A stretch of DNA of 64,000 nt, from assembly GCA_001972305.1 (NCBI GenBank), contig BDDD01001479.1:122872-186871 (forward strand), given 5' to 3'. Both the position numbers and the translations under genes were made by a program. Of this stretch, positions 356-63,639 are shown in pieces; within the stretch, counting starts at the first letter, position 1; each line of letters opens with the position of its first letter. This DNA comes from Cephalotus follicularis. Taxonomy: Eukaryota > Streptophyta > Magnoliopsida > Oxalidales > Cephalotaceae. A model generated the notes under the pieces. That model worked only from the letters and a program-made list of their open reading frames with translations, ran no database searches and had not been told where the DNA came from.

Positions 356-3123
356 TGTAACACCCCCGGACGGCGAGAGTTGTCATAGGTCATAATACAG
401 AAACTATCATAACATAACATATCTGAACATAAACATAACTTATCAGCCAAAAACGTGGCAGTCATAGCATAACGGAAACTTAAAAAACTTAACAATTTCA
501 GAAAACTTAAACATATTCCAGTTCAAAACTAAAGCATATGTATCTTATTGTTCATGACCATTTAAATAGAAAACATAACGGGATCACACTCCTAGGGATC
601 CAAAATATAAGGTAATCATCTCTCGTTCACACATTCCCCCGCTGCTCCTGATAACCTGTCGCATGGAAAAACAAAAACGCGGCTGAGCAAACCTCAGTGC
701 GGATAAGGGAAATAAAACAGTAAACGATAAATTTTAAAAGCAGTAATATTTCAATAAATCTCGTAACAGAAATCTTAAGCAATTAAAAACAATTAAATAT
801 TCGTAAAGTCACATTTGTACTTTCATAAAATCCATATAACTTTTGAAACATTTCAAAACATCATATCACTATTCATAAGTCATACTGAGCCACATACATA
901 TCACATAACATATATTTGGCAAGGGAGGTGCTAATTCCACATGCCCACTAGAATTGAAGTGTACGGCACTACACAAGTCAATTCTCACATATCACATATC
1001 ATATGACATATCATAAACTAGAATTGATTCATACGCCTCTATCAAATAGCGGATCCATAAATCCACCTCTTGGGATTTATTCATAACATTTAGAGACGTC
1101 GTAGACTAATCACACCGCTATAGAAGTGTCATGTCCCCGTGCCAGGACTACGACATGCCTATGGTACGCCCCATAGGTGGGTACAATACTCAGTATTCAA
1201 TCATTTCAAAAATATTGATTTATAAAAATCAATTTAAAAACACATAAATATGCTTTCACAAAACATATTTAAATATTGTTCACAACGGTACCATAACATA
1301 CATTTCATAATCAAAACATCAAATCATTTATTTTTCACTATAAAGCGGTGATCATAACATATCGTAACGCATCGTATCATATGAATAAGGTCGGAAACAT
1401 TCATAAATGTCAAAAACCAGCTTCATTTTCGAAACATGTCAAAACCATAAAGCATTACCAAGTTCATAAACGAAGAAGCATAGCAATAAGTAAAACTGAT
1501 TTATTTTGATAAAATCATATGAGTGTATCAAGGAATGAAATATCCGTACCTTATGAGTTCACAAAAGCACTTACGGATAAATGATTTAAATCAAACTCCC
1601 TTTGAAGCGAAAAAATCTAAAAGACACCCAAAACCATTCATATAAGGGTCTAAGAAACATTAGAGACGTTAAACAGACTCATTACAGTGTTTAGAAAAGA
1701 CCCGGATTGATTCGAAAAACAAACGGAGCAAAACAGTTGAAAACACAAATTTTTCTGGGCAAAAAAGCTGACTGTGACAGAGCATCGGCCGACTGTGGAA
1801 GCTTGGCAGTCGACTAATCGCAAGGGCCAGTCGACTACACAAGACAGACTGCAGGCAGTCGACTGTCACATAGATCGAGTCGACTGTGCATAACAAGGCA
1901 GTCGACTTATTCATAGGGCAGTCGACTACACAATCCAATCCAGCAGACTGTCCACAAGAACAGCCGACTGTTCTGGACGACAGAATAGCAGAAATTCGAC
2001 ATATTAATGCAGAAACTAGTTTAAACGAAAATGACATTAAACCAGAGACACAAGAACATAAACATATGACCTTATATGACATTTAGATGACACAGAAACA
2101 CATAATTGACAAGGAAACAGTTAGACAGTGGCTTAACTTCCAAGGAAAGCAAGAACAACATTTAGCAAGTGCATACATATATGTCCAGATTTCTGTCCAT
2201 TATCATTTGCAGACTTTAAGGCCAGATTATGATATGTCTAGAGTGCATAAAACATGTTGACAGACTTACTAACACCATGGCCGAACATGTTTATATGCAG
2301 GAAATCAAAACTTAAAGAACACTAAGAACACTACAACAAAACCAAAAGACAAGTGAAACAAGTCATTACAGTGAGATTACTAACATGCAATGATTATCCA
2401 GAACACAGAAAACATAGCAAGAATACCACAAATTCACTGTTCATACGGCTATTTGCAGGAACAAAGAAAAGAAAAAAAGGGGACACATAAACATCCTTAA
2501 CAACTAAAGGAATTCAACCCATTAGAACAATCAAAGGATTGAAATTATCACTTTAAACTTGAGGAAACGATTTCACAGCAGATTACACAGGCTTCACAAA
2601 GCAGAATCGGCAGTGACACTTACAGAAAAGAGGAAGGCACATATAAAAGGCAATGTCTCTCACCATAAGGAAAAAGGGAGACAAAATCTGACCAAGAAGG
2701 AAGAAGAGAGGATTTCAGGAAATGATAAAGGAAAAAGGAGATTGCACCGTGTGAAGTTGATGAGGGGAGGGAGAGGATTACGGGAAAGAGAGGGAGAAAA
2801 GGAAAGAAAAGAAAAAGAAAGAAAAGAAAATAAGGAAAAAGAAAAGAATTAAAAGAAATGTAATAAAATAAAAGAAAAGAAAAGAAAAGAAAAGGTTTTA
2901 AAAATAATTGTTTTAGTAAAATAAAATTTTGAATTAGGTAAAATAAAAACCCAAACCCAACATTGCATTATCACAACCAAAATTTAGGCTGGTATCGGTC
3001 AGTCCAAATCACATAGGCCCAAAACATAGGGCAACCGGACTTTAAAATTAACAAAATTAAAAAGCTCGAAATCAAATACATAAAAAGTCCGTAAAAACAC
3101 TTACGAACAAGCAGGGTATTACA
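356..3123 (-). repeat. 3' LTR of Ty3-A
   Basis: About 2.77 kb, TGTAACACCCCCGG at the left edge and GGGTATTACA at the right. It matches 7892-9476 and the solo LTR 9648-12395. Notable contents: a conserved stem-loop block near 640-710, a run of AGTCGACT motifs at 1780-1960, and an extreme purine-rich stretch at 2540-2895 that is pyrimidine-rich on the element's own strand. Open frames here (for example around 1669-2086 and 2559-2852) are low-complexity by-products, not genes. Confidence 0.94.
1780..1960. promoter_or_regulatory. Phased AGTCGACT motif array in Ty3-A LTR
   Basis: GTCGAC occurs at 1809, 1830, 1858, 1879, 1901 and 1921, so most steps are 20-22 bases, close to two helical turns. GCCGACTGT variants lie on both sides. 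The palindromic core is perfect in most copies. A regulatory role is inferred from position and phasing only. Confidence 0.5.
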
Positions 3124-3142
3124 TCCACCCCCCCTTAAAAAG
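3124..3142 (-). other. Polypurine tract of Ty3-A
   Basis: On the minus strand the bases just inside the 3' LTR read as an A/G run containing seven consecutive G, the usual plus-strand primer of LTR elements. It abuts the LTR edge at 3123. Confidence 0.85.
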
Positions 3143-3176
3143 GATTTCGTCCCGAAATCACAAGCATAAACATACC

Positions 3177-7886: not shown

Positions 7887-7891
7887 CAATC

Positions 7892-9647: not shown

Positions 9648-12395
9648 TGTAACACCCCCGGACGACGGGAGTCGTCACAGGTCAAAATACATAACCTAAC
9701 ATAACATATCTGAACATAAACATAACTTATCGGCCAAAAATATGGCGGTCATAGCATAACTGAAAACTTAAAAACTTAACAATTTTCGAAAACTTAAACT
9801 TATTCCAGTTCAAAACTAAAACATATGTGTCTTATTGCTCATGGCCATTTAGACAGAAAACATAATGGGATCACATTCCTAGGGATCCAAAATATAGGGT
9901 AGTCATCTCTCGTTCACACATTCCTCCGCTGCTCCTGATAACCTGCCGCATGGAAAACAAAAACACGGCTGAGCAAACCTCAGTACGGATAAGGAAAGAA
10001 AAAGCAATAAACGATAATTTTAAAAGCAGTAAGATTTCAATAAAATTCATAACAGAAATATTAAGCAATTAAAAACAATTACATATTTGTAAAGTCACAT
10101 TTGTACTTTCATAAAATCCATATAACTTTCGAAACATTTACGAAACATTTCAAAACATCTTATCACGATTCATAAGTCATACTGAGCCACATACGTATCA
10201 CATAACATATATTTTGGTAAGGGAGGCACTAATTCTACATCCCACTAGAATTGAAGTGTACAGCACTACACAAGTCAATTCTCACATATCACATATCATA
10301 TCATATATCATATACTAGAATCGATTCATACGCCTCTATCACATAGCGAATCCATAAATCCGCCTCATGGGATTTATTCATAACATTCAGAGACGCCGTA
10401 GACTAATCACATCGCTACGGAAGTGTCATGTCCCCATGCCAGGCGTACGACATGCCTATGGTACGCCCCATAGGTGGGTACAATACTCAGTATTCAATCA
10501 TTTAGAAAACATTGATTTATCAAAATCAATTTAAAAACACATAAATATGCTTTCACCAAACATATTTTCAAATCATTCACAAACGATATCATATCATACA
10601 TTTCATAGTCAAAACATGAACTCATTTATGTTTCTCTATAAAGAGGCGATCATTTCATAACATATCGTAACATATCGGATCATATAAATAAAGTCGGAAA
10701 CATTTAAATGCATAAAATGTCAAAAAGCAATTTTATTTTTTGAAACATACCATAAAACATAACCAAGTTTATAAAACGAGGAAACAAAACTGATTTTTAG
10801 TTCGATAAACCAGATAGCCAAAGAAACGATAGAAATCCGTACCTTTTTGCTTTCACAAAACTCTTACGAAAAGATTGTTCACTCAACTCCCTTTCAAGCA
10901 CAACAATCTAAAAGCCACCCATAACCATTCATATAAGGGCCTAAGAAACATCAAAGACATTAACAAACTTATAACAGTGTTTCGAAAAGACCTAGATTGA
11001 TTCAAGGAACAAACGAATCAAAACATAAATTTTTCTGGGCAAAACAGCCGACTGTTATAGAGCACCAGTCGACTGGGGAAGCTTGGCAGTCGACCAATCA
11101 CAAGGGCCATCCGACTACATAAGACAGACAGTAGGCAATTGACTAGTTCATAGATCCAGTCGACTACACAACCCAAGACAGTCGACTATTTTCATATGAC
11201 AGTCGACTACTCATCCAATCCAGTCGACTGTCCACGAGAACAGCCGACTGTTATGGACGACAGAGTAGCAGCAACATGACATTTTTATGCAGAAACCGGT
11301 TCAATTGATTACAACATTAACCCAGAGACACAACGACATAAACATATGACATAGTATGGCATTTAGATGATGCAGAAACACATAATTGACATAGGAATAT
11401 CTGGACAGTGGCTTAACTTCAAGAGAAAGGAAGAAAAGTATTTAACATGTGCATACATATATGTCTAGATTCTTGTCCGTTATCATTTGCAGACTTTTAA
11501 AACCAGTTTGTGACAAGTCTAGGTATACAAAACATGCTGACAAACTTACTAACATCATGACAGAACATATATACACAGGAAATCAAAACTTAAAGGACAT
11601 TAAGAACAAAACCAAAGACAAAGCGAAACAAATCATCACAGTGAATTTACTAACCTGCAATGATTGTCCAGAACACAAAAAACACAGCAAGAACACCACA
11701 ATTTTACTGGTTAAACAGCTGTGAAGAAGGGAAGCCAAAGAGAACCAAAAACAAGGAGATACATAACTATGCTTATCAAACTAGAAGAATTCAACCCAAT
11801 GGAACAACCAAAGGATTGAGATTACCTCTTCAAACTTGAGGAAACGATTTCACAACAAATTACACAAGCTTCACAGTGCAACTTTGGCAGTGGCACTTGA
11901 CAGAAAAGTGAGACACATTTAGTCACTCTCCAAAAGGAAAAGAGAAGACAAAATCTGCCCAAGAAGGAAGAAAAGAGGATTTCAGGGAAGGAGAAAGGAA
12001 ACAAAGATTGTTGCCGTGTGACATTGATGAAGGGAGGGAGAGATTACGGGAAAAGGGAGGAAGAAATAGGAAAGAAATAAGAAAAAGAAGGAGAAAAAAG
12101 AATAAAGGAATTAAATAATTAAAATAAAAGAAATAAAGGAATTAAGAAATTTTAAAATAAAATAAAAGTAATTTGTTTTAATAAAATAAGTTGGATTATA
12201 GTAAAATAAAATAAAAACCCAAACCCAACATTGCATTATCACATCCAAAATTCAGGCTGGTATCAGTCAGCCCAAATCACATAGGCCCAAAACAAAAAGG
12301 GCAACCGAACTTCAAAATTAAACAAAATTAAAAAGCCTGAAAACAAGCACAAAAAAAAGTCCGTAAAAAGACATACGAACCAGCAGGGTATTACA
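9648..12395 (-). mobile_element. Solo LTR of the Ty3-A family
   Basis: A 2.75-kb LTR closely matching 356-3123, flanked by the 5-base duplication TCAGT at 9643-9647 and 12396-12400, with no internal region. This is the product expected when two LTRs of one element recombine. It carries the stem-loop block near 9950-9990, the AGTCGACT array (GTCGAC at 11068, 11089, 11159, 11181, 11202, 11223) and a purine-rich tract at 12000-12190. Orientation is inferred from the match to the LTRs of Ty3-A. Confidence 0.95.
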
Positions 12396-12749
12396 TCAGT
12401 AAAAGGGAAGTTCATTTCAAGACATTTTTAAAAGTCATAAACACTTGAAATGTATATTTTCTAGTAAGTAGGAAATACTTTAAACAGTTAAGTAGTGGAA
12501 ATTGCTTTCCCAGTATGTTCAAAAATGTGCAATTATCCAATATATATTTTTGTACTCAAAACAGTGTTTTCCAAACTCATATATGTATTTCTAAATTAAT
12601 ATAATAATTTAGAAATCATCCACAGTTCATGACCAGTGAATAAACAGGCAGTAACAGTACATATGCGATGCATACAAATACTCTAATGCACCTTAACTGG
12701 AATCAGGATCGTTTCGTGTCATTGAAGTAAGAAAACCTCCAAATAGTAC

Positions 12750-13030
12750 AAGAAGGCATCGATGTCTATCCTTAGACGTTGATGTTTTTGTCCCTTAAGA
12801 GTCGACGCTCAACTCCTTAACGTCATCGCTTTCCACTATTCCGAAGACGTCGATATCCAACTTATACGCGTTGACGCTCAAGGTGTGGAACCTTAAACGC
12901 CAGCGTATTGCTTAAGGCGTCGACGCATTAAGGTAGGAACCTTAGGCGTCGACGTATAATACGTCAGTATCCATGTAGACAACCCAAAGGCATCAATGTT
13001 TCCCCAAAGGCGTCGATGTTTTCGAGCACA
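12750..13030. promoter_or_regulatory. GCGTCGACG-type motif array in the old LTR
   Basis: Repeated motifs with cores ATCGATG, GTTGAC and GTCGAC at about 12758, 12779, 12801, 12822, 12849 and 12870, again mostly 20-22 bases apart, with further copies to 13017. Several copies are CpG-decayed forms of one another. The function is unknown. Confidence 0.45.
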
Positions 13031-14091
13031 ATCATCTTATTCCTCACGACATGACAAAACAGTAACCTCTCCAACTCAACAACATGCAATCCAACATGCA
13101 TGAAGCCCGGAAAACTGACATGCAACATCATATTACACATCCAGTACAACATGGCATAAATTCAGTGACCAAAAACAGTTCAATTCACCATGAAAGCTAT
13201 GCACAAAAATCACTGTCCAGGCATGAATATTAAGCTCAAAATTACAATTATGGCTTCCCCTACCTCTGGCTTCAAGTTAGAAGCCGAAAGTCCACGACTT
13301 CTAGTACTCAATCAGTCCCTTTGAGCTCCTAGGTTCGACTTGAATGTTCCCAGGTTCGCTCCAGTAGTTGTTGTCTAGCCTTCAAGCTCTCCCTTGCTCA
13401 ACAATGGAGTTTGAGTTTTCTCTCTCTATCTTTTATACTTCCTTTCCCTCTCTGTGTCTCTCTCAACTATTTTGGCCTTCTCTTTCAGTAACAGATGAGA
13501 GGGATGAGAGGCGTCGACTTTATGTAGTTGTTATTTTGTTTTCTCTGCATGCTCTCACGATTTCTTCTCCTCTCTCTCTTGTACAACCTGGTGCAACAGG
13601 TGTCCCTTTATTCCTTCTCCCAGTTCATGCATGGTTAGAATGCCACTCCTATCTGCCTTTTTTTTGTTTCTGGCACTTCAGAGAATCTCGATGCATGATC
13701 AACACATCATAAAATGCATGTGAAGGTGCCTCAAGAGTGGCATGAAAAGGCCTCCATGCGACACGTAATTCTGTTAGCAGAAAACGTGTCTGATATTCGA
13801 CTCTAGGCGTCGACGTTTTGCAAAGGCGTCGAAATTTTTGGTCATTTCTTGTAATGGCGTCGACGCATTTCTTCCACGTCGACGTGCATGTGCATGGTTT
13901 ACGTGCGCGTCTTTAGCCCAAAATTTCAATACTTAAATCAAAGAACTCCTTTGAAATTCCTTTTTGAAATTTCAACCATTAAAAAGAGAAAACATCATCA
14001 AAATTAGGAATTTCATTATTCTCATTAATTTCGTGATAAGGTTACACCAAAAATTAAATTATTACAACGTGTGAAAATCTCGGGCGTTACA

Positions 14092-14348
14092 GCAGCCTAT
14101 GCTCAGCACCAAGAAGATTGGTAGGCTTAGCCATGCCTCCAAAAACATTCTCATTAGGGTAAAACATCCTAAGACAATATTCAAGCACTAATTCCAGATC
14201 CTCCGACCATTTCTTTGCCTCAAAAAACTTTGAACCAGCAGTAAGTATATATTACCTAACTTCTTATCATCAAACTTAATCACAGTCTTGTTAACCTTAG
14301 ATTTAAGCCCTAAAACATTATTGCAATCATCTCCAACATTACTCATAT
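14092..14348 (-). pseudogene. Unrecognised gene-like fragment between two LTR elements
   Basis: These 257 bases lie between the old LTR end at 14091 and the Ty3-B LTR start at 14349 and match no element part I know. The minus strand has codon-like, non-repetitive composition. One stretch encodes NNVLGLKSKVNKTVIKFDDK; another, in a different phase, encodes KKWSEDLELVLEY followed by ENVFGGMAKPTNLLGAEHR. The two coding-like stretches are separated by a short AT-rich segment, which could be decay or the relic of an exon junction. I do not recognise the family. It could be a host gene exon marooned by insertions, a gene piece captured by a transposon, or an unfamiliar transposon protein. Confidence 0.35.
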
Positions 14349-16249: not shown

Positions 16250-17108
16250 TGTCACATCCCGTTTCCATAAAATGTAGACAACATATAAAGTGGTACGGCA
16301 ATCAACATAAAAGTCCGGCTTATGCAAAATTTCCATAAATTTAAAACTTTTCAAATCCATTAACAACTTGCGGAAGCATCAAATATAAGCCGAACACATC
16401 ACGCATCCCATACTACGTGATGCCCGATAAATCAAACGTAACTGTTGATCGCCCATGTAATATCCCGTTTTCTGTGTTAACATGTTTATATGTTTATTGT
16501 TTGGCATCGTACCATGTTTGACTTATGCTATGTTTTGTTGACCCATTTGATTTTTGGTTTGAATTCCTGTGAGTTTTGTTTTCTGGGCACAAGGCGCCGA
16601 CTCCTTCCTTTGAGACGTCGACTCCTTGGCGGCTGGATGAGAGGTCGACGCCTATATGTGTGTTTTGATGCGTCTTGTATTTAAAGGCTTGGCAGTCGAC
16701 GCCTTAAGCAACCTGTCGACGCCTTGATCGGGTTTCCATATTAGTTTGGTCGGTGACAACGTTTTTGGAAGGCTGATTTCTTGCCTTTTCTGGTTATTCG
16801 TTTTTCCTTAAGTGTTAAGACGCGTTTTGTTAATATAGTAATATCCTAATCTGTTGATTTTAGCCATTAAACACCGAATCTTGCAATTAAACCAGACTCA
16901 CAAAGGAGTCGACGTCTTTCCAAAAGACGTCGATGTCTTTTGGCCAAAACAGCGCCGTTTCAAGCTTTACATACACATTCCATTTCTTAGTCCATAGCTA
17001 GGGTTTGCAAGCATCTTTCAAGCCAAAACTCAACATTCTCATTAAATCAAGTTTAATGATTACATCATAAATGGAAATATTACATCCAAGAAAATACCGG
17101 GCGTTACA
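16250..17108. mobile_element. Small LTR-type insertion within the Ty3-B1 LTR
   Basis: An 859-base insertion starting TGTCACATCCCG and ending CGGGCGTTACA, flanked by the duplication CGACA at 16245-16249 and 17109-17113. The same LTR without this insertion is visible in reverse near 53030-53060. An internal TGTAATATCCCG at 16456 looks like a second LTR start, so the piece may be a recombinant of two related LTRs. Its right edge read backwards (TGTAACGCCCGG) resembles the old LTR ending at 14091, so both may belong to one gypsy family. There is no coding content. Confidence 0.82.
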
Positions 17109-17147
17109 CGACACTTAAGGAATTTCACCGCATAACCAAGGCAAACT

Positions 17148-17212
17148 GTCGATGCTTTAAAATAGGCTGTCGACGCTTTATAAACTGTCGACGCTTATTC
17201 TTGGCAGTCGAC
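17148..17212. promoter_or_regulatory. Phased TGTCGACGCTT motifs in Ty3-B LTR
   Basis: GTCGA(C/T)G occurs at 17148, 17169, 17187 and 17207, steps of 21, 18 and 20 bases, each followed by CTTT or CTTA. The homologous array in the relative's LTR is at 52928-52992. Confidence 0.45.
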
Positions 17213-17371
17213 GCTTTCAACGTTGCAAAACATACGCCAAACGTTTTCTCACACACATTACAAGCCATAGAACAACCATATAACAATGATTTCAACAAAA
17301 TTTCCGGTCCAAAACAAATAGCCAAATAAAATTTTCTTCCGGGGGCACCGCTGTTTGGGCAGTGGGACCCC

Positions 17372-17397
17372 CCGTTCGCTCACCGGGGAGCGAAACC
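17372..17397. other. GC-rich hairpin in Ty3-B1 LTR
   Basis: TTCGCTC (17375-17381) and GAGCGAA (17388-17394) form a perfect 7-base stem with a 6-base loop, within a strongly GC-rich block (17340-17412) that stands out from the AT-rich surroundings. A related block exists near 52740-52785, but there the stem is not maintained. It could affect transcript ends or reverse transcription; that is inference. Confidence 0.5.
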
Positions 17398-26504: not shown

Positions 26505-27145
26505 AAACATCGACTTTCAAGGAATAACATCGACGTCCGTACAGAAAGACATCGACGCCTTCCAAGAAGACATCGACGCCTTTCATGCCATAAGTTACAG
26601 GTCAAATTCATAAGAAGACATCGACTTCTACAGGCAAAGACATCGACGTCCGTACAGAAAGACATCGACTCTCAAAGAAATGACATCGACGTCTTTAGTG
26701 CAAGATCAAATTACAATGAAGACATCGTCCTTCCAGTAATGACATCGTCGTCCGTACGGAAAGACATCGACTACTTCCAAGAAGACATCGACGTCTTTAG
26801 ATGCCAAAGTTACAGGACATTTTCATGCAATGACATCGACGCTTATCAGTAAAGACATCGACGTCCATACTAAAGACATCGACGCCTTTCCATGGACATC
26901 GACGCCTTTCTAGAGCAACATGGAATTCCTAGAAAACACATCGACTCTCACAAAAGAAGTCGACGAGATGTTCAAAGCGTCAATACCTGGAAATTTCCCA
27001 GAAAAGACATCGACGCCTTTTGGAAAGAAGTCGACGTCTTTTCAAATGAACAAGACCCGGGAAATCTGGAACGGGTAGTTCAAGCACTACAACGGCTATC
27101 AGCTACAAAGACATCGATGCCTTTTGAAAGAAGTCGACGTCTTTA
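26505..27145. promoter_or_regulatory. About 20-copy phased CATCGACG motif array in Sirevirus LTR
   Basis: Cores begin at 26508, 26528, 26550, 26571, 26619, 26641, 26663, 26684, 26723, 26743, 26765, 26786, 26834, 26856, 26877, 26897 and onward. Nearly all steps are 20-22 bases, or roughly double that. Consensus is about GACATCGACGYCTTT, with AAGTCGACGTCTTT in later copies. It ends about 95 bases upstream of the TATA box. A promoter-proximal protein-binding array is the natural reading, inferred from position. Confidence 0.6.
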
Positions 27146-27237: not shown

Positions 27238-27244
27238 TATAAAA
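27238..27244 (+). promoter_or_regulatory. TATA box of the Sirevirus 5' LTR
   Basis: TATAAAA in the context GGCTATAAAAGGA, conserved in the other LTR at 36282-36288 and, inverted, at 60497-60503. Transcription would start about 30 bases downstream. Confidence 0.75.
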
Positions 27245-30164: not shown

Positions 30165-30171
30165 TTTCCAT

Positions 30172-35429: not shown

Positions 35430-36841
35430 TGTTGACGATTAAGTCTCAATCCTTGTTTTGATGATAACATATTTGCATTTAACAAGTCTACTTAATGTGC
35501 ATGAAATTACAAGATCAATACCAAAGCAAAAATACCATCTGCAGAAGAAGACATCGACTTTCAAGGAATAACATCGACGTCCGTACAGAAAGACATCGAC
35601 GCCTTCCAAGAAGACATCGACGCCTTTCATGCCAGAAGTTACAGGTCAAATTCACAAGAAGACATCGACTTCTATAGGCAAAGACATCGATGTCCGTACA
35701 GAAAGACATCGACTCTCAAAGAAATGACATCGACGTCTTTAGTGCAAGATCAAATTACAATGAAGACATCGTCTTTCCAGTAATGACATCGACGTTCGTA
35801 CCGAAAGACATCGACTACTTCCAAGAAGACATCGACGTCTTTAGATGCCAAAGTTACAGGACATTTTCATGCAATGACATCGACGCTTATCAGTAAAGAC
35901 ATCGACGTCCGTACTAAAGACATCGACGCCTTTCCATGGACATCGACGCCTTTCTAGAGCAACCTAGATTTCCCAGAAAACACATCGACTCTCACAGAAG
36001 AAGTCGACGAGATGTTCAAAGCGTCAATACCTGGAGATTTCCCAGAAAAGACATCGACGCCTTTTGGAAAGAAGTCGACATCTTTTTAAATGAACAAGAC
36101 CCAGGAAATCTGGAACGGCTAGTTCAAGCACCACAACAGCTATCAGCTACAAAGACATCGACGCCTTTTGAAAGAAGTCGACGTCTTTATACCAGCAGAG
36201 ACAAAAATCAAAGATTGCAACTATACATTTATTAATCAAAAGCTTCCACAAATCATGCAACGACTACAAACCTTTTATGGCTATAAAAGGAAGACTCAGA
36301 GAACAGAAAGAAGGAGTGAAGAAAATCATACATACAAAGATCAAGCAAAACAAACATACAAAAGATCAAATCAAATTCAAAGTTCCTTCGAAAAGCTTTC
36401 TCTTCACATTCTAAGCTATTTTCTTGTTCTCACTGAATTGAGCAATTATATCTTGTAATATCCAACCTGTGAGAGGTTTAGCTACAAACACTACACTTTA
36501 CACTTTACACTTTGATTGTAATAGGGGAGTGAACCCTAGTGAATTTGGGGAGTGAACCCAAAGAGAGTTGTAAGTGATTGAGGTCAATCACAAAGGTGAA
36601 CCGAATAGCACCTGCAATTGTATTCGGAGAACTAGTGGAAACACAAGGAGATCCTTGGGAAAAGTGGACGTAGGCAAGAGTTTGGCCGAACCACTCTAAA
36701 CTAGTGTTTGCGAATCTCCCTAACTCTATCTCTTTACATTATTGTTTATATTGATATTGTTAATTATTATTGTTCATTGCGAAAAGTTTAGATTATTTCT
36801 AGAAACTACAATTCACCCCCCCTCCCCTTGTAGTTTATTCA
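35430..36841 (+). repeat. 3' LTR of the Sirevirus
   Basis: 1,412 bases, about 98 percent like the 5' LTR by eye, with the motif array at 35548-36190, TATAAAA at 36282-36288 and the C-rich stretch near 36811-36829. CTTAC follows at 36842-36846. Confidence 0.95.
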
Positions 36842-38499: not shown

Positions 38500-39800
38500 T
38501 GTAGGTCCACAACAAGCAACCTAGAGGGGGGGGGGGGGGGGGGTGGGTGAATAGGTTGTGCAGAAAATAACCCTCCTCCTTTTCAATTAAAAACAAATGG
38601 AAACAAACAATCAAGTTACTCTAAACAATTATAAGCAATAAAATAACTTGCAGTTGATTAAAAGAGTAAGGGAAATAAAGTTGCAAACAATGTATAGTGG
38701 TTCAGCCAACAATGCCTACGCCCACTCTCCCAAGCTGCAACTTGAGGTTCCACTAAGATTATAATCCCCCGATCACAATCCGAACTTCAGTACTTTTACA
38801 AGTTGAATCTTAAGTCAGATTTTTGCAAGTTCAATCCTAACTCAGATTTTTGTGAGCTAAATCCTAACTCCTAATGTAGGTACTAATGACCTGGTATTAC
38901 AATACACTCATATAGGTGTAGTGTTTGCAATAACCTCTACAAAGGTTGAATATAAAAGCAATTGCACAATATCAAAAGGTAATACTTGCAAAATATAACA
39001 AAGGCTCTTTGAGAATATGAAAGTGCAATTGAGAATTGCTTGATGTTCTTGTTGTTGATTTAGCCTCTATTTATGCCTTTGTGTTGAATATTATCGTTGC
39101 TATCATCAAAGGCGTGTTGGAGTTATGTATGGTAGGATCTCACAATTTCAGCACTTTCATTGTTTGGTAGATTTTGTGTCTGGCTGTCATTGGCACTGAC
39201 GTGTACGCATGGCATTGACGTCTATCCCCTTATGTGTTAACTCCATTAGCTCTTCACTTTGACACCACAAGCTTTTGTCTATTTTTATTCATATATACGT
39301 TGACGCGTATACATGGCGTCGACGTGAATGTCATCTGTGTTGACTCCAATTTCCTTGTGCGTTAACGTCCAAGTCTTTGTTCAGATTTGTGCACTCATTT
39401 ACGTTGACGTCTAAATATGACGTTGACATCTTCCGGTTTTGAGTTGACGCTAAAAAGGCTTCACGTTAACGTTCAAACCTACTGTCCGAAATTACACCTT
39501 TTGACGTTGACGTCTTCCGTATGGCATTGACACCAATAATCCAATCCCTGACACGTCGACGAGAATCATTCAAGGAATTGACGAAGATCATCCTCCAAAG
39601 CCTAGAACTCATACTCAAGTCCAGAACGTTGACGTCTAAGATATTGGCATTGACGTCAATATGACTGATCTGCACAATTTGCTTGTTTTGCACTTGTAAC
39701 TTTTCCTATTTGTTACTTTGAAACATATCCTTCACATCAACAAAGACATTAGGTGTTTTGTTATCATCAAAACCAAGATTGTGACACGTAAATGTCAACA
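38500..39800 (-). repeat. 5' LTR of the older Sirevirus-type copy
   Basis: 1,301 bases with TGTAGGTCCAC and AATGTCAACA edges. An 18-base G run at 38526-38543 lies near its inner end. The outer half (39200-39680) holds the GTTGACG array. ATTAC at 39801-39805 would be its target duplication, but the other side is not available to confirm. Confidence 0.85.
39195..39685. promoter_or_regulatory. Phased GTTGACG/GTTAACG motif array
   Basis: Cores at 39299, 39318, 39339, 39361, 39403, 39422, 39443, 39465, 39506 and 39526: steps of 19-22 bases or about twice that. TGACG and TTGAC are also the cores of known plant bZIP (TGA) and WRKY sites; whether those factors bind here is untested. Confidence 0.5.
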
Positions 39801-41486: not shown

Positions 41487-44177
41487 GCAACGACCCAAAC
41501 CTATCAATTTGTATTTGATTATATTCTCGGTAATTTACGTACCTTATTTGTATTTGATGCATCAGAGTGTTTTATACTCATCCTATTTGTATTTGTTATG
41601 CATACATATTATTATTATTTTATTCAGACTCGTTTCATTTGAACTTCGAGATATCAGACCGCTATTATTGTGGCTAGTTGAGCTACTTATAACCGGCCCC
41701 ATTCTATCACAAATCATATTGTATCCTAATAGCTAACACTCAGTAGTACACCACTCTTTTAGATTTCCTATCTCCCTTCTTCACCACACATCCTAACTAA
41801 CATGCCAGCTACTCCATATAGTCTACAGTACGTTATAACACTTGACAAAAATATCTCTGGCTACTCACTACTAATTTCTAAGACACAAACATAAAGGCGT
41901 AAACACTTCTCCTTCTTCCTTTTGCTAAGCCGACTCTGCCAGTCCCATTGAAGAAATCCTTGAACTTCCAACAAAATCTACAACACTTACTCAACACTTG
42001 TTCAAACTATCTTCAACTTGCTCAAACGACTGGATTTTAGACTTGAGTCTAACCTCCAATTTCTGCTGTCCAACACACTAGACGCTCCAAGCTTTTCTTG
42101 TAGAGTTTCTCTACCTAAAATTCTACTTATTATGCACTATATAACCTGTATATTAGTTTGATATGAACTGACTTTGTGATTGTTTGATTGAGAATGCTAG
42201 TTTTAGGTTTTATGTGTTTAATGACCTAGAATTGGAATTAGGGTTAACAATTGATTCAATGGATGGAAACATGTTTATTGGAGCATAACAAACTTATATG
42301 AACTACTAAAATATGCATAAAATGATTTGGTAAACGTAGGGATGGAAAATAGCTTGAAAAACTCACTTGGAAATGTCACAGTGTTGTCTAAGCGTCGATG
42401 CTTTACCCACGAGTGTCGCCGCTTAGCACAACTAATACATGAAAATCTGAGGAGCACGATCAAAGCACCAATGCTTTGATATTAAGCATTGACAGTTTGA
42501 TATTAAGTGCTGACGTTTAATATCAAGCATCACCGCTTAACATAGTTTCATTTTTGGTGCAAAGCACATGCAATAGTGCTAAGCGTCGACACTAGGCACT
42601 GACCTATAAGCATCACAGCTTAGTCTAACCATTGGCGCTTTGTACACCTTTTACATAACTTATTTTAGAGCCCAAAGCATCACCGCTTATTATGAAGGCA
42701 TTGCTGCTTAAGGCGTTGCCTTATAAAAACTAAGCCATTTTCAATCCTTTTCAAAACAACTGCTTGACCGAATCGATTTTTGAGATCGCTCGAGCCTTTT
42801 AAACTGTTTTCTCTCTGGTTAGGTAGGTTGCATTGATCTTTCTACAAATCAATTGATTTTGTACCATGATCGATTGACACAATGGGCTAACTGATTCGTT
42901 GACCACTAGATTGCTTGTCTAGTTGATTTAACCACAACATTATCGTTAACCAACATGTCATGATGAACAGTGGAATAATCGCATTGGGGATAGAGTGAGT
43001 GATTGAGACCATATGCACACTAGTGATTCCCTAGTCGTGTTTATGTTCTAACCACACCGATTAGATATCCGTTGCCTAGTGGTTAATGATATTGTCACTG
43101 ACTGTTATTAACATTGATTAACGAACTTCAACCATAGGAGATTAGCAATTGCTAACTGGGTCGGCCATAAGAGGACTTTATCTCTGTCTGTTCCACCTTA
43201 TAGATCTTCGTCACCTATTGACTTATACTATGGACATGTACTTGACTTGTATTGATTTGATTTGGTTATTCCTATTAGAGCTACCTCATGACCCCAGTCA
43301 TGATGCGAGATGATCAATTTACCATCTACTCTTCCTATTTGGATCATCACAAGCCTTCGGTAATATCACTTGACTTGATCACATCCGGTGGCACTTACCA
43401 CTATGAACACGGTTGATGGTACCTACCGTCGCGTACACGATGACTCCTAATCATTTGATGATGCACCTAGTGGCACTTAGCACCGCGTATGCACCCGAGT
43501 GGCACTTACCACCGCGTACGTGCTCAGATGAAACTTACCATTGAGTAGGCTCTTAGTTGGCACTTATCAATAAGCAAACCTAGTAGGTTTAATCCATTGA
43601 TCCAGACCTACTGGCCGGTCTAGCCTTCTACTCTATAGGACTACCCTCTGGGGGTTAGATTGCCATTATACTTGACTTGACTTGACTTATACATATATGA
43701 GGTCACACGCTATATAGGATTCACTTGCTTTAGTTGGATTTGATCAGAGTGTTTCCACACTCTGCTATTGAATACTATTGATTGTCTACTTGATGATTTG
43801 ATTTATAGAACATGCATGAGGTGGTTGTATACGACTTGTGGATCCCAACAGTCATTCATGAATTCGTATATGCCATGCATTGGTACTGTACACTTGATAC
43901 TAGTTAATGTTTACTTGCACATTTATATCACACTGTATGTATGTATATAGCATAATATGTGCATGGGGATATATCTACTTGGCCCTATGGCTGACCCCTC
44001 CTATGGGATGAGGGATCTACGTGTCTTCAGGAGACGTTGCAAGGACTAGTTCTCGAGGAGACTGCTAGTTCCTACTCTTTCACTCAAAGACTTGAATATC
44101 GTAAGGACCGAACCTTATTGTTTGATTAGGGGTGTCCCTGCAAACCAGTAGGTGGCTCTACACGTATGTATTATATG
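41487..44177 (+). mobile_element. Gypsy-like LTR remnant
   Basis: It starts TGCAACGACCCAAACC, close to a standard TGTAACGACCC gypsy LTR start. It holds decayed AAGCGTCGATGCTT / AAGCATCACCGCTT motifs at 42380-42720, a set of short degenerate repeats at 43385-43570 and a long unstructured stretch to about 44125. At 44126 a TGATTAGGGGTGTCCCTG sequence resembles an Angela-like LTR start, so the last 50 bases may belong to an older copy of that family. No open frame has recognisable protein character. Ends and orientation are uncertain. Confidence 0.5.
43385..43570. repeat. Degenerate GTGGCACTTACCACCGCGTA tandem repeats
   Basis: About five irregular copies of a unit of roughly 35-55 bases built around TGGCACTTA(C/G)CACCGCGTA(C/T)G. 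Such repeats are known from other plant gypsy LTRs. Confidence 0.65.
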
Positions 44178-46563
44178 TGCTAGGTTAGGGGTGTCAATGT
44201 ACGTCAGAATATGGCTTGTTGGTTGTACATATACACTTTTAATTAATACAATTCTGAATTCCATTCATATTTCATATGCATATTTATTTATTGGCAAGGC
44301 TATATGGCTCATCCCAAACAATCGAAAGGAACAAAATAATTATACGTAATGAACTGTATGTCATATAGCGCCCTATCACACCAAAGGGTTGGATCTTGTG
44401 CCGAGAGGGCTATGAGAATGAGATCCTTACTCTGTGTGACAAATGTTCCAACCATAGGTTCAGTTTCTTTGGGCCATTGATGAACCGTGAAGACTTGTCA
44501 CGTTAAGCTTGCTCCCGGGTTAGCAGTGGAGGATTGTTATCCTGTAGCCATTTGGGTTTACCCCTAAAGCTAAATGTGAGGTTTATGCTAGAGAGCGTGA
44601 CACTAAACTGACCCACCAATCAGAAACCTATTTGGATAGTCAATACCCAATGTAAATAGGATTCCTATGGTCTCGGTAGTGTATAGTTTATGGTGACTAG
44701 TAGGTATATAGCCCGCGTTGTCTCCTTTGACCTGAGTGGCTGGCATGTGTTGTGTGGTGACTGCTTGTCTTTGATTTTTGCCTTCCCCAACACTAGCCGA
44801 GTGCTGGCAAAAGGGTTGACTTTGGGTCTTGTGGTAGCTGCATTGAGATATGTGGGTGAGTGCGCAATAGGGGATCATTACAACTGAGCTGAGGGTGACC
44901 GGCTCTATTTATCTATGTACGTTGCAGACTTAAAAGTCCTGATCAGGCATAGGTGGACTGCGAATGAGAGGTTTCCGTGGGAGGTCTACCGATAGTCTCA
45001 GAGCGATCATAAATTCATAGTTATCGCACCAATACTAGGGGTGACATTCAACCAAACCCTAGGTTATGATCGGAGCCAAGTATGATGAGGGAACATGACA
45101 CATATACCGATGACTGGACAACACGACTGGCTATTAAGACAATGATTGATATACGTGGTAATACATGGATCCGAGGGGTGACTAGTGCTCACACCGTGGC
45201 TGCTCTGATAGTCAGTGTACTGTTAGAGTGGTTTTACAAAAAATCTGGATGCGCTGGGAATTTATCATCATACCGAAGAACGACAAGCTTCCGGGTCCTG
45301 CCTGACTTTGAACAAGTTGATATGTGGTGGGACACATATCATTTAGTGAAAGGACAACATCAAGGAAGATGTTACTTTGTTAGTGAGTATTTCATTTGAC
45401 GGATTTAGGTCCATGCAATACCACGATGGAATATTCCATGCAAAGTGTTTTGAAAATAGAAGAGATTGTCTCATCTTTGTCTTAGGCGTCGATGCCATGA
45501 AGAGCATGCGTCGGTGCCATGTCTAGTTGAGTTGCTGGGCATTAACGCGAATGGCTTCCATCAAAGCTGACAAAACCAGGAGCTTTAAACCTCGACGCCA
45601 TGGAGAGCATTTGTCAATGCCATAACTAGATTGAGCTGTTGGACGTTAATGCTATGGAATGCATGGTGTTGAGGCTTGAAAAACTAGTAGCTTTACGCAT
45701 CGACGTTGTGTTGTTTACATGTGTATGAGAAGACAAATGAGGCTAGGTGCGTGTTTCATCCCATCGTTGGCGTTGACGCCTACATAGGATGAGACACATG
45801 GTGTTGATGTCTTGACAGGTCGATGTGCGGGTTTGTAGGAGAGATAAAGTTAAAAAGTCAAAATATAAATACTTAATGACTAAAGAGCAAAAGCACTGAA
45901 GCTTCCATAACATACTTCCTCTTTCTCTCTTTTCCATGCGCCTCTCTTCTTCATGTTGCAATCTTACGCATCGATGCCTATCGCCTACGCGACGACGCCA
46001 ATAATGTCTGGTTTGTTTTTACAGCCATTTTCACCATCCTTTCACCACTCAAAGGTCATTATAGGTGGAGATAACTTGCACACTGCATTTTATCTACAAC
46101 TAGAGTGATTTAGTGTAGGGTAAACACTGGCCTTGAATCCTTGGATCTTGCCTTTCGTGGCTTGTGGAGGAGCTTGGAGCTTTTGGAGATAAAGCTAGAG
46201 GGAGCTTGTCTTGAAGGAAGGAGTCTTCACCTTCAGTAAGAATCTCTTCTTCTTCTCTCTTGTGGTAGTGGGTTGTAGTTCGGATTAGAGAACCCTTTTC
46301 TGAACCCCTTTTTCTTTTGGTTGTTTGTTTCTCATCCCTTAGGGTTAGGGATGATGTGGGTTTGGGTTGATTGGACTTTGTCTAGGGTTTTTTGTGTTTC
46401 GTTGTGAGACGTCTTTGGAGTCCATTTCTACGGTTTACTTAGATTAGGGCATCCGATTGCTTGGGGATTAATCTATTGGTGGAAAATTAAAGTTAATCGG
46501 CCATAAATCCTAATGTTCGAATTGATACATCTTCCGCTATGCATGGGCCATGCGTTCCCAACA
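44178..46563 (+). repeat. 5' LTR of the Angela-like element
   Basis: 2,386 bases from TGCTAGGTTAGGGG to CCCAACA. It carries decayed GCGTCGATGCC motifs at 45485-45980 (cores at 45488 and 45510, and at 45592 and 45614, 22 bases apart), and a CT-rich leader at 45910-46310. Small frames at 44152-44349, 44603-44887 and 45082-45399 recur in other copies only as part of the LTR and look non-coding. Confidence 0.88.
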
Positions 46564-52642: not shown

Positions 52643-54754
52643 TGTAATGACCGAAATTTTTTGTTAAAGTTATATGGAAATTTGGTTGCTATTGTTGAGG
52701 TTAGGAAATATTTCAAAGGACCAGTACTATGACCATAACACTCGAGGGTTCGAGGGTTCTGCTCCCCGGTGATCAGACGGGGGATAATGTGTGTGTGAAC
52801 ACGTTTTGTTGAAGCCTCAGAAATTTTGTTGGACTAGAAATTTTGTTGAAGTCATTGTTATATGGCTGTTCTAGGTCTTGTAATGTGTGTGCGAACACAT
52901 TTTGCGCATGTTTTGAGATGTTGAAGCGCCGACTGCTAGGAATAAGCATCGATAGTTTATAAAGCGTCGACTGCCTATTTTAAAGTGCTGACAGTTTGCC
53001 TTGGTTATGCGGTGAAATGCCTTAAGTGTCGACTAATTTCAAGACAAGCGTTTTAGCCTAAAAGCGCTGACGGTTTTATGCGTTTTTGTCGACAGTTAAA
53101 GCCCATTTCCTTTGTTATTTTGTTTAACAGGCGATGCTTAGCGAGGAAAGCGGCAGCGCTTTGAGACTTAAGCGGCGACACTTTGCTCATAACCTCTGAC
53201 GCTTTGAGAAAAAATTGAAAATGACGGCGTCTTTTTGTCGTTTTACGTGTTAATAATTCTAAATAAGGAAGCGTGCCACCATATGAAAGGAAGGCGATAG
53301 ATTTTTGTAGCCGTTGTGGTAAGAAAACAACACTTGTCATTTTCCTGTGGCAAGAAAGAGAAGGGAGAGGGCAGCTGCATTCCCTATAAATACCAAGTGA
53401 AGGTAAGTCTGAGGACAGTAAAAATTTTACTGAGAGAAAGAAGAGAGAAAGAGAAGTGAGCGAAAATTTTGCTAAGATTACTTCAGTGTAGAAACAGAAA
53501 GAAGGAGATTAAAGCAAAGTAAGGATTCTTACTTTCTAAAGTATTTTATTTTAGTAAGGAATTTTACTCCCTTTTCCAAAGTATTCTATTCTATATTTTA
53601 TACTAAAGTAATTTATATTATTTCTGAAAATTATATAGTAAATTGTTATGTTTTACGTATTTCAAATTTCTGCTAAATTCTTGATAAAATTCTATGTTAA
53701 AATCATTGCTCATGTTTTATGAATTTATCATTGTTGAAATGACTACCATAATTTTACTGTTTTTATGTAAATTCAGTTTTACGAATGTTGTACGAAATTT
53801 GTTTTAAGGATACATTGAGCGGATCACTCAATGCATTAAGAAATGTTTTTACAAAATGTGAAAATGTAACTAACTGAGATGAACAACTACTGGATTGCGA
53901 TCCAGGGAGGATTAATCTAGTAAAGATTAATGTTATGATCGGAGAGTGCTCACGGGCATGCATGTGATGTAAGGATAGTAATCGAGGAGTGCACAATGCC
54001 CCGGTGAAGCAATGGTTCAATTGGGTTATTTAAGTTTATACAACCCCTCAGTTATTTATGAAATGTTCTGATTTATGAGATATGATCAGAAAAAGAAATG
54101 AAATGTTCTGTTTCATGAGTTATGAACAGAAAATAATGAATGTGATTTTTATAAGGAAATGAATGTGAAACGTGTTGGTTTTTATACCAGAAAAGAATTT
54201 TAATGATGTTTTATTTTCAAGTATGGCTATGTTATATGTCGAAAGAATATACGATTTAAAAAAAATAAAAAAACGTTTTGATATAAAGATTATCAAAAGG
54301 GAATTTCGATAACGTTTTTTTAACTATGATTCTTACTGGGCTATTTAAGCTCATTCCTTTCAATGTTTTGTTTTCAAATAAAATTTGCAAGAGATGATTG
54401 ACATGGAATTTGAATTTTAGAGGAAGCTCGGAAAGCATGTTTGGAAAGAAAATATGTTATGCATTAATTTTTATATAAACTGTTGTTGATATAATAAGTT
54501 AATATTTTCCGCAGTGAAATGCATCATGATGATTTCATCTATGAACGTTAAAGTTTATGATGATTTAAATGAGAGTATGATATTAGAAAATTTGGTATTG
54601 AAAGTTGTAAATTATATATGAGATTATGAGAAGTTAGATAAATATTAACAATTAGTAAGATTGTTAAAAGATTAAAGGATTTACCCCCATGTAACGCACA
54701 GATTCCTCGAGATTCGCTTTGAGCTTAAAGAGAACTCGGATCGGGGGCATTACA
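52643..54754 (+). repeat. 5' LTR of Ty3-B2
   Basis: 2,112 bases, TGTAATGACCGAAATTTT to GGGGCATTACA. Phased motifs GCCGAC, ATCGAT, GTCGAC and GCTGAC at 52928, 52948, 52966 and 52987; further GCGCTGACGG and GACGCTTTG variants to about 53210; GAGA-rich leader at 53430-53510. Confidence 0.92.
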
Positions 54755-59951: not shown

Positions 59952-61254
59952 TGAATAAACTACAGGGGGGGGGGGGGGTGAATTGTAGTTTCTAAAAATA
60001 ATCTAAACTTTTCGCAATGAACAAAAATAATTAACAATATCAATATAAACAATAATGTAAAGAGATACAGTCAGAGAGATTTCCAAACACTAGTTTAGAG
60101 TGGTTCGGCCAAACTCTTGCCTACGTCCACTTTTCCCAAGGATCTCCTTGAGTTTCCACTAGTTCTCCGAATACAATTGCGGGTGCTATTCGGTACACCT
60201 TTGTGATTGACCTCAATCACTTACAACTCTCTTTGGGTTCACTCCCCAAATTCACTAGGGTTCACTCCCCTATTACAATCAAAGTGTAAAGTGTAGTGTT
60301 TGTAGCTAAACCTCTCACAAGTTGGATATTACAAGATATAATTGCTCAATTCAGTGAGAACAAGAAAATAGCTTACAGTGTGAAGAGAAAGCTTTTCGAG
60401 GAACTTTTAATTTGATTTGATCTTTGTATGTTTGTTTTGCTTGATCTTTGTATGTATGATTTTCTTCACCACTTCTTTCTGTTCTCTGAGTCTTCCTTTT
60501 ATAGCCATAAAAGGTTTGTAGTCATTGCATGATTTGTGGAAGCTTTTGATTAATAAATGTATAGTTGCAATCTTTGATTTTTGTCTCTGCTGGTATAAAG
60601 ACGTCGACTTCTTTCAAAAAGGCGTCGATGTCTTTGTAGCTGATAGCCGTTGTAGTGCTTGAACTAGCCGTTCCAGATTTCCCGGGTCTTGTTCATTTAA
60701 AAAGACGTCGATGTCTTTTCTGGGAAATCTCTAGGTATTGACGCTTTGAACATCTCGTCGACTTCTTCTGTGAGAGTCGATGTGTTTTCTGGGAAATCCA
60801 GGTTGCTCTAGAAAGGCGTCGATGTCCATGGAAAGGCGTCGATGTCTTTAGTACGGACGTCGATGTCTTTACTGATAAGCGTCGATGTCATTGCATGAAA
60901 ATGTCCTGTAACTTTGGCATCTAAAGACGTCGATGTCTTCTTGGAAGTAGTCGATGTCTTTCGGTACGGACGTCGATGTCATTACTGGAAGGACGATGTC
61001 TTCATTGTAATTTGATCTTGCACTAAAGACGTCGATGTCATTTCTTTGAGAGTCGATGTCTTTCTGTAAGATGTTTTCTTTGCAGTTAATCCTGTACAAA
61101 AGGCGTCGATGCTATTTATAAAGGAGTCGACTTCTTTTTCTGCAGAATGGTTTTAGACTTTGATATTCAACTTGTAATTCCTTGCACATCAAGTAACTTA
61201 GTTAGATGCAAATATGTTATCATCAAAACAAGGATTGAGACGTAATCGTCAACA
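59952..61254 (-). repeat. 3' LTR of the second Sirevirus
   Basis: 1,303 bases, homologous to 35430-36841 reversed. A 14-base G run at 59965-59978, TATAAAA on the minus strand at 60497-60503, and a phased CGTCGATGTC array at 60600-61130. Confidence 0.92.
60600..61130. promoter_or_regulatory. Phased motif array in the second Sirevirus LTR
   Basis: The same CATCGACG/GTCGACTTC motifs as at 26505-27145, inverted, with similar 20-22 base steps. Upstream of the TATA box in the element's sense. Confidence 0.55.
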
Positions 61255-63287: not shown

Positions 63288-63639
63288 AGAGAATGATAAA
63301 AACGAATGATTTGGACAACACGAAAACAGTTTTTGAAGATGGAGAAGTAGTCAGGGAGTGATTTACGACCTAATAGAATGATTTTTGAAGAAAAACGGAG
63401 AGAGAAGAAAAATTTTGAAATCTCAGAAATGGAGGTAAAGTGAAGGAATGAACATGAGGTCGACTTTTTATGAAGAAGTCGATTTCTGAGAAAAAGACGC
63501 CGACGTTATTCAAAAAGAAGTCGACGTGTTCTTTAAAATGGAGCAGCAAAAATGGTGCGTTTTGAAAAGCATCGATGCGATTGAAAAGTAGTCGACGTGT
63601 TTCAGTGAAACACAAAGGGATCGATGTTTTTCAAACAGG
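63288..63639 (-). other. Motif-rich spacer of the second Sirevirus
   Basis: Reversed match to about 33050-33396, with GTCGAC/ATCGATG motifs at 63460-63630. The match ends at AAACAGG, after which unrelated LTR sequence starts. Confidence 0.75.

What the first reader, a model, noticed from the sequence alone, without database searches (positions are those of the whole stretch)
1780..1960. The same phased GTCGAC code recurs in unrelated gypsy and copia LTR families
GTCGAC-type cores at 20-22 base steps occur in the Ty3-A LTR (1809, 1830, then 1858, 1879, 1901, 1921), its solo LTR (11068-11223), the old LTR (12758-12870), the small LTR insertion (16596, 16617), Ty3-B LTRs (17148-17207; 52928-52987), the 41487 LTR (42394, 42415), the Angela-like LTR (45488, 45510; 45592, 45614), and two spellings of Sirevirus LTR. 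Flanks differ (AGTCGACT, GCGTCGACGCC, GTTGACGTC), so these are not copies of one sequence. Convergence on a host factor, or exchange between families, would be a new type of shared LTR feature across both superfamilies. I know of no description.
Basis: partly seen in the sequence, partly recalled or inferred. Interest (0 to 1): 0.9.

Follow-up and report, generated by a model that had tools for sequence, protein, structure and literature searches.

The report
One phased box across retrotransposon superfamilies
In this genome (likely a plant), jumping genes of two unrelated groups carry the same short mirror-symmetric DNA word, repeated about every two turns of the helix in their end repeats, which likely are docking sites for one shared regulator made by the host.

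Summary
The observation largely holds and is genome-wide. In the 1.58 Gb host genome, exact GTCGAC pairs 20-22 bp apart number 166,339, against 373 at 15-17 bp, 5,964 at 25-27 bp, 964 at 35-37 bp, and 84 for CTCGAG at 20-22 bp. In a 200 kb sample, 105 of 442 adjacent core steps are 19-22 bp, against 1.3 in shuffles; six gene loci give 0 of 17. Arrays sit in LTRs of Ty3/gypsy and of at least three Ty1/copia lineages; both box dialects occur in both superfamilies. Linkers look unrelated between families in 103 of 110 tests. Exceptions: the 41487 and Angela-like LTRs of the window are not above chance alone, and one nested LTR lacks the box. Palindromic 'RM boxes' in Sirevirus LTRs were described in 2010 (PMC2829016); for the spread to gypsy and other copia, and for the two-turn rule, nine paper searches listed no description. 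Likely mechanism, untested: LTR promoters converging on a symmetric host DNA-binding factor.

The parts
1788..1968 (-). Phased array, CAGTCGACTG dialect, in the 3' LTR (about 356-3125) of E1, a minus-strand Ty3/gypsy chromovirus
   Evidence: 8 cores, 5 of 7 steps 19-22 bp; chromodomain, RVT_1, RNase H, RVP_2 in its ORFs; PBS at 7886
11047..11248 (-). Same array in the solo LTR (9648-12397) of the E1 family
   Evidence: 8 cores, 6 of 7 steps 19-22 bp; 82% identical to the E1 LTR
12758..13017 (-). Core cluster in the 'old' gypsy-type LTR stretch (about 12399-14100; type and strand read from its ends)
   Evidence: 7 cores, 1 of 6 steps 19-22 bp; phasing alone not significant
13513..13883 (-). Second core cluster of the 'old' LTR stretch, ahead of a TATA-like site at 13437 (-)
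   Evidence: 4 cores, 1 of 3 steps 19-22 bp
16596..16934 (-). Boxes of a separate gypsy-type solo LTR (C, 16250-17108) nested in the E2 3' LTR
   Evidence: 7 cores, 3 of 6 steps 19-22 bp; TGTAACGCC...GATGTGACA ends with TSD TGTCG on both sides
17148..17212 (-). Array of the E2 3' LTR (gypsy, LTR about 14349-17510)
   Evidence: 4 cores, steps 21, 18, 20
26509..27138 (+). 20-core array in the 5' LTR (26386-27792) of E4, a Sirevirus-type Ty1/copia element
   Evidence: 13 of 19 steps 19-22 bp; RVT_2; TSD CTTAC; TATA-like box at 27238
27238..27244 (+). TATA-like box about 105 bp past the last core of the E4 array
   Evidence: TATAAAAGGAAGA is also in the aligned relative L015
32953..33225 (+). Second array of E4, between the pol ORF and the env-position ORF at 33334
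   Evidence: 9 cores, 4 of 8 steps 19-22 bp; 9 vs 1.0 expected, max 4; counterpart in L015 at 3732-3978
35553..36079 (+). Array in the E4 3' LTR (35430-36841)
   Evidence: 97% identical LTR pair
39299..39633 (-). Array, 7 of 9 cores GTCAAC on the element strand, in the LTR (38498-39799) of E6, a second Sirevirus-like copia element
   Evidence: broad cores 10 vs 1.8; copia gag; PBS at 38497
42394..42720 (+). Degenerate AAGCGTCGATGCTT-type boxes of the 41487 LTR (E7), ending at a TATA-like box (42722)
   Evidence: not above chance by strict core
45488..45704 (+). Degenerate boxes in the 5' LTR (44178-46565) of E5, an Angela-like copia element
   Evidence: 2 cores only, not above chance alone; relatives L009, L013, L014 carry clusters of 4-5 cores
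52928..53093 (+). Array in the 5' LTR (52643-54757) of E3 (gypsy, relative of E2)
   Evidence: 5 cores, 1 of 4 steps 19-22 bp; RVP_2; TATA-like box at 53385
60707..61131 (-). Array in the LTR of a second, minus-strand E4 copy (59952-61254)
   Evidence: 16 RTCGAY vs 1.3 expected, max 6
63459..63525 (-). Env-upstream array of that second E4 copy
   Evidence: 4 cores, steps 19, 21, 21; 2 RTCGAY vs 0.2, max 2

Best explanation
The LTRs of unrelated gypsy and copia families in this genome carry arrays of one palindromic box centred on GTCGAC, set about two helical turns apart, which likely are docking sites for a symmetric host DNA-binding factor that would act on LTR transcription. Shown: the box, its genome-wide two-turn spacing, its presence in both superfamilies in two flank dialects, linkers between boxes that mostly differ between families, and position ahead of a TATA-like box in several LTRs. 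Inferred: that a protein binds; that it is dimeric; that it is a host factor, since elements with different coding genes share it; that it activates rather than silences; and that families acquired the array convergently by amplifying a half-made site inside their own LTR. AP2/ERF factors of the DREB/CBF type, whose recalled site RYCGAC fits the common core variants, are a lead only.
For: Genome-wide GTCGAC pairs: 166,339 at 20-22 bp against 373 at 15-17, 5,964 at 25-27, 964 at 35-37 and 84 for CTCGAG at 20-22. In the sample, with simple repeats left out, the 22 hexamers with most same-word pairs at 19-22 bp all belong to the box or its edge; of 23 periods tried, pair distances have most power at 10.2-10.4 bp (no null was run). 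Sample: 25 arrays in 13 of 20 stretches against a mean of 0.15 arrays in 60 shuffles; no array in 6 gene stretches. Same dialect in both superfamilies: 9 of 9 cores A..T in the copia LTR of L017, as in gypsy L025 (11 of 11), L026 (9 of 10), L027 (10 of 10), L023 (10 of 11); C..G cores in copia E4 (12 of 20), L015 LTR (7 of 15), L013 (5 of 5), L014 (4 of 4) and in gypsy L011 (4 of 6), L018 (8 of 10), L024 (4 of 4) (pol anchoring, Pfam). Linker similarity at chance in 103 of 110 tests. Core CpGs kept in 77 of 91 aligned places against 58 of 97 in box flanks and 89 of 234 in spacers, over nine comparisons that are not all independent. TATA-like box 20 bp past the last core in L017 and about 105 bp in E4.
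Against: No binding, expression or methylation data. Steps of 28, 48 and 70 bp also recur and fit 7 bp multiples (power at 7 bp too), so helical phase is not strict between sub-clusters; the 30-32 and 41-43 bp genome counts did not complete. No TATA-like box follows the arrays in gypsy L013, L018, L024, L026 and copia L014, nor in the solo LTR of family A and in C; in E6 the only one lies inside the array, and in E1 it is 564 bp away. Base identity is hardly higher in cores (568/647) than in spacers (6731/7844) when cores of either partner are counted. Core CpGs are poorly kept in the Angela-like comparisons (2 of 3 and 0 of 6). The full core-CpG retention between the two E4 LTRs (21/21 vs 28/40 outside) was not seen in the L011 pair (4/6 vs 12/16). 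In the window alone, flank symmetry beyond the core is weak. A family without the box exists (19703-22112).
Confidence: 0.55

Rival explanations
1. Exchange: the arrays descend from one module that moved between families by recombination or template switching, and only its boxes have been kept.
For: A 40 bp stretch of the C gypsy-type LTR matches the Sirevirus LTR at 36 of 40 in the same sense (p 0.02); 'old' LTR versus L011 is above all 60 shuffles in both senses (33 vs max 28 and 28 vs max 27); 7 of 110 tests have p of 0.03 or less, where about 3 are expected.
Against: 103 of 110 tests at chance. L017 (copia) carries the CAGTCGACTG dialect in its own LTR, although it was not among the arrays. 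Flank clustering gives 11-14 groups at 150-250 bp links (8 at 100 bp).
Confidence: 0.17
2. Silencing or RNA structure: palindromes are kept as hairpins or as small-RNA or methylation targets rather than as protein sites.
For: Palindromic structures in maize Sirevirus LTRs have been linked to siRNA (recalled; paper not held). Slight within-array covariation of flanks in the C dialect (position 3 p 0.001, sum p 0.018).
Against: No within-array covariation beyond permutation in the A dialect (sum p 0.16; position 3 p 0.039); symmetry is mostly a fixed consensus, not free pairing; arrays lie ahead of TATA-like boxes in several LTRs.
Confidence: 0.12
3. DNA-mechanical phasing: a TCGA step repeated at about 10 bp multiples places a nucleosome or bends the LTR.
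For: Power at 10.2-10.4 bp.
Against: The identity of six or more bases is kept, not only a dinucleotide; CTCGAG, with the same TCGA centre, has only 84 pairs at 20-22 bp.
Confidence: 0.08
4. Minisatellite slippage: LTRs amplify 21 bp units by replication, with no function.
For: Higher-order duplications exist in E4 (215 and 111 bp shifts) and L026 (450 bp).
Against: The most phased words are those of the box, the same core recurs with mostly unrelated linkers, and spacing varies while the box stays.
Confidence: 0.06

Closest known systems
Sirevirus repeated motif (RM) boxes, Bousios et al. 2010, PMC2829016 (read: abstract, sections 9, 10, 19, find passages)
   Same: Palindromic, high copy number, clustered in the upper half of the LTR upstream of TATA, extra cluster upstream of ENV; flanks differ by element; the Vitis box CGGTCGACCG contains GTCGAC. 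E4 matches this anatomy.
   Different: RM boxes have a CGG-CCG signature in all listed elements but Tnd-1 (12 of 13) and are reported as absent from classic Ty1/copia; gypsy elements and a spacing rule do not come up for RM boxes in the parts that I read. Here the core is RTCGAY, the spacing is about two turns, and gypsy and two other copia lineages carry it.
Palindromes in the cis-region of maize Sirevirus LTRs (Bousios 2016; recalled, not held)
   Same: Palindromic arrays in LTR regulatory regions
   Different: One lineage in maize, discussed with small RNA; recalled only
ONSEN heat-responsive element and EVADE W-boxes (PMC12786077, section 2.1 read)
   Same: LTR cis-elements that recruit host transcription factors
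   Different: Family-specific sites; no sharing between superfamilies or array phasing described in that section
VANDAL tandem motifs bound by VANC proteins; Su(Hw) sites of Drosophila gypsy (both recalled)
   Same: Arrays of a short site in mobile elements read by a specific protein
   Different: One element family each, and VANC is element-encoded

Membership tests
Sirevirus RM boxes | Palindromic box | tested here: met
   Sample, 89 GTCGAC: flank complementarity 0.74, 0.51, 0.42, 0.49 at distances 1-4 vs 0.40, 0.27, 0.31, 0.35 permuted. Window, 54: weaker, 0.44, 0.31, 0.37, 0.46 vs 0.38, 0.24, 0.32, 0.44
Sirevirus RM boxes | At least eight copies per element, clustered in the LTR | tested here: met
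   E4: 20 cores in the 5' LTR. E2 has 4 and E3 5
Sirevirus RM boxes | CGG-CCG core signature | tested here: not met
   E4 LTR cores are ATCGAC, GTCGAC and one ATCGAT. GCCGAC/GTCGGC variants occur in the A dialect
Sirevirus RM boxes | Extra copies just upstream of the ENV gene | tested here: met
   9 cores at 32953-33220 ahead of ORF 33334; also in L015
Sirevirus RM boxes | Absent from non-Sirevirus elements | tested here: not met
   Similar boxes in gypsy (E1, L011, L018, L025-L027) and in Tork-like (L017) and Angela-like (L009, L013, L014) copia; lineage names are my reading
One mobile satellite | Homologous linkers between arrays | tested here: not met
   103 of 110 tests at chance, 60 shuffles each; 7 at p of 0.03 or less
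DREB/CBF-type AP2/ERF site (RYCGAC, recalled) | Core fits RYCGAC on at least one strand | tested here: inconclusive
   GTCGAC, ATCGAC, GCCGAC fit; ATCGAT, GTTGAC, GTCAAC and AGCCGGCT (4 in the sample) do not
Host transcription-factor site | Bound by a host protein in vivo | not testable with these tools
   No binding data at hand

The most novel reading that the evidence does not exclude
A genome-wide, superfamily-crossing cis code: most big LTR retrotransposon lineages of this host, gypsy and copia alike, have independently rebuilt their promoters around one palindromic box at two-turn spacing, so that a single host regulator switches over a hundred thousand box pairs together.
Probability: 0.4. 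Interest if true: 0.92.

Novelty: new variant of a known kind. Interest (0 to 1): 0.78.

Why it matters
LTR promoters are thought to be family-specific. If unrelated superfamilies in one genome converge on one box with a fixed helical spacing, retrotransposon bursts in that lineage could hang on one host regulator. That makes the question of what drives genome expansion directly testable by identifying the protein.

Tried and rejected
Selection on cores by plain identity: first looked positive in most pairs (cores 0.80-0.94 vs spacers 0.77-0.84), but that counted only cores intact in one partner. With cores from either partner the gap shrank to 0.88 vs 0.86; only CpG retention stays clear, and not in the Angela-like pairs. 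Methylation footprint: 21/21 vs 28/40 in E4, not replicated in L011; dropped. Hairpin selection by covariation: weak. Rfam: no match at the gathering score in the window. Papers: nine searches listed no paper on this box in gypsy LTRs; apart from the papers named here I saw listings and abstract starts only. The four terms GTCGAC, LTR retrotransposon, motif and plant together gave 0 papers. The RYCGAC search was seen as a listing only. PMC11656987 was seen by find passages only. Host species was not identified; 'likely a plant' rests on the element types. Flank clustering first merged 23 of 38 arrays through nested neighbours and weak links; longer links gave 11-14 groups.

Full report
Observation. 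The coordinates given for exact GTCGAC are right for the first LTR and its solo copy. GTCGAC occurs 54 times in 64 kb against 5.9 expected, CGTCGA 85 against 9.3, and CATCGACG 24 against 0.33. Clusters show steps of 18-22 bp, with further steps near 28, 42-44, 48-51 and 59-64 bp. With the solo LTR, the E4 3' LTR and 59952-64000 left out, 34 of 60 neighbouring distances (7-60 bp) are 19-22 bp, against a jitter mean of 4.3 and maximum of 14.

What carries it in the window. E1 (minus strand, LTRs about 356-3125 and 7891-9476, PBS at 7886) is a Ty3/gypsy chromovirus. E2 (minus) and E3 (plus) are related gypsy elements. A separate gypsy-type solo LTR, 16250-17108 with TSD TGTCG, is nested in the E2 3' LTR and holds the boxes at 16596-16934. 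E4 (26386-36841, TSD CTTAC) and a minus-strand copy near 59952-63639 are Sirevirus-type copia with a Transposase_32 ORF in the env position. E6 (LTR 38498-39799) has a copia gag. E5 (44178-52642) is read as copia: Pfam gave only a sub-threshold gag_pre-integrase match and nothing for its RT piece, but that RT piece matches L014 at 79% inside a stretch that also matches the E4 RT over 422 residues. A nested solo LTR at 19703-22112 has no core. The lineage names Sirevirus, Angela-like, Tork-like and chromovirus are my reading from domains and anatomy.

Per-LTR statistics. Against 200 dinucleotide shuffles per region, enrichment is clear in E1 3'LTR, its solo LTR, 12399-14348, E2 3'LTR, the three E4-family LTRs and the E4 env-upstream stretch; marginal in E3; present in E6 only with GTTGAC/GTCAAC counted; not significant in E5 and E7; absent in the nested 19703-22112 LTR.

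Genome scale. The host assembly is 1.577 Gb. Exact GTCGAC pairs: 15-17 bp 373 (reversed-pattern control 273), 20-22 bp 166,339 (control 1,742), 25-27 bp 5,964 (control 241), 35-37 bp 964 (control 153). CTCGAG, same base composition and same TCGA centre, gives 84 at 20-22 bp, while its reversed control GAGCTC gives 4,380. Both reversed controls are themselves high at 20-22 bp, for reasons not examined. The 30-32 and 41-43 bp requests did not complete.

Sample. 20 stretches of 10 kb (positions 30001-40000 of contigs C100, C200 and every 200th up to C3800 of 9,746; so spread, not random; 186,667 bases without N) hold 89 GTCGAC against 17.7 expected. 461 broad cores give 105 of 442 adjacent steps of 19-22 bp and 25 arrays of at least four cores, against 1.3 (max 4) and 0.15 (max 1) in 60 block shuffles, and against 15.4 (max 26) for adjacent steps under position jitter. 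The arrays lie in 13 of 20 stretches. In a scan of hexamers without simple repeats, the 22 words with most same-word pairs at 19-22 bp all belong to the box or its edge. Six chaperonin-gene stretches (28.4 kb) hold 5 GTCGAC against 1.2 expected, 0 of 17 steps of 19-22 bp and no array. That control is small.

Both superfamilies, two dialects. Anchoring on pol matches and Pfam: L017 is a copia element with RVT_2; its 3' LTR, about 3161-3837 as I read it, holds 9 cores, all with A and T at the two sides, and a TATA-like box 20 bp past the last one. The same dialect fills gypsy LTRs in L023, L025, L026 and L027. The other dialect, AAGRCRTCGAYGYCTT, is in Sirevirus copia (E4, L015) and gypsy (L011, L018). 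Related forms are in Angela-like copia (L009, L013, L014) and gypsy L024. Pfam was run on L017, L018 and L011 only; the other sample elements rest on tblastn.

One sequence or many. Between eleven arrays, the best 40 bp match was compared with matches after shuffling only the linker letters, 60 times: 103 of 110 tests were at chance; the seven at p of 0.03 or less (about 3 expected) are E1 versus the env-upstream array, C versus the E4 LTR, 'old' LTR versus L011 in both senses, 'old' versus L018 in both senses, and E4 versus L018. L017 was not in that set. Clustering of 38 arrays by masked flanks gives 8 groups at the loosest setting and 11-14 at stricter ones; nested neighbours make that number approximate. 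This argues against one satellite and for convergence, or for very old divergence with only boxes kept.

Site character. Symmetry reaches at least four bases beyond the core over the sample GTCGAC boxes and is weaker in the window; pooling dialects helps that figure. Within arrays it is mostly consensus, with only slight covariation, as expected for a protein site rather than for hairpins. Of 23 periods tried, distances have most power at 10.2-10.4 bp, but also at 7 bp; no null was run for this. Core CpGs are kept in 77 of 91 aligned places against 89 of 234 in spacers, over nine comparisons, four of them on the E4-family LTR; the Angela-like pairs go the other way or nowhere (2 of 3, 0 of 6). 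The E4 LTR pair kept all 21 core CpGs but the L011 pair did not (4 of 6).

Position. TATA-like boxes follow the arrays in E4, E7, E2, E3, the old LTR and E5 and in L015, L017, L011, L025, L027 and two of three L023 arrays, at 20 to nearly 800 bp. None follows in L013 (gypsy), L014, L018, L024 or L026, nor in the family A solo LTR and C; E6 has one only inside the array and E1 one 564 bp away. The TATA pattern is loose, so only the closest ones (L017, E4, L015, E7) weigh much. Sirevirus E4 and L015 have a second array before the env-position ORF.

Comparison. Bousios et al. 2010 (PMC2829016) describe this anatomy for Sireviruses, with a CGG-CCG signature, and say that it is absent from the classic Ty1/copia elements examined. 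E4 works like an RM-bearing Sirevirus. The signature and the Sirevirus-only rule are not met here, so the gypsy and other copia arrays are not filed as RM boxes. Nine paper searches of an open-licence library listed no account of the two-turn rule or of gypsy arrays; subscription papers are missing from it, and I saw most entries as listings.

Verdict. Real, genome-wide, shared by both superfamilies, and best read as convergence of LTR promoters on a host DNA-binding factor, which is untested.

Noticed in passing
16245-17113: The nested solo LTR C went into a TGTCGAC site of the host LTR array (TSD TGTCG), so insertion split one of the boxes.
   Followed up: partly
7891-9476 versus 356-3125: The E1 5' LTR lacks the stretch matching about 1711-2892, which contains the whole phased array, while the 3' LTR keeps it.
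   Followed up: partly
19703-22112: A gypsy-type solo LTR, distantly similar to the E1 LTR, has CpG o/e 1.28 but no core; CCGGCC and ACCGGC are somewhat enriched instead.
   Followed up: partly
26386-27790 and 35430-36841: Between the two LTRs of E4 all 21 core CpGs are unchanged while 12 of 40 other CpGs differ; L011 does not repeat this.
   Followed up: partly
25850-26385: Fragment beside E2 with boxes of the type GCGTTGACGC, GCGTTAACGC, ACGTTGACGT; its element was not settled.
   Followed up: no
genome-wide: The reversed controls CAGCTG (1,742) and GAGCTC (4,380) are also frequent at 20-22 bp; the cause was not examined.
   Followed up: no
L026:5265-6860: A 450 bp block holding an array is duplicated at 88% identity within one stretch.
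   Followed up: no
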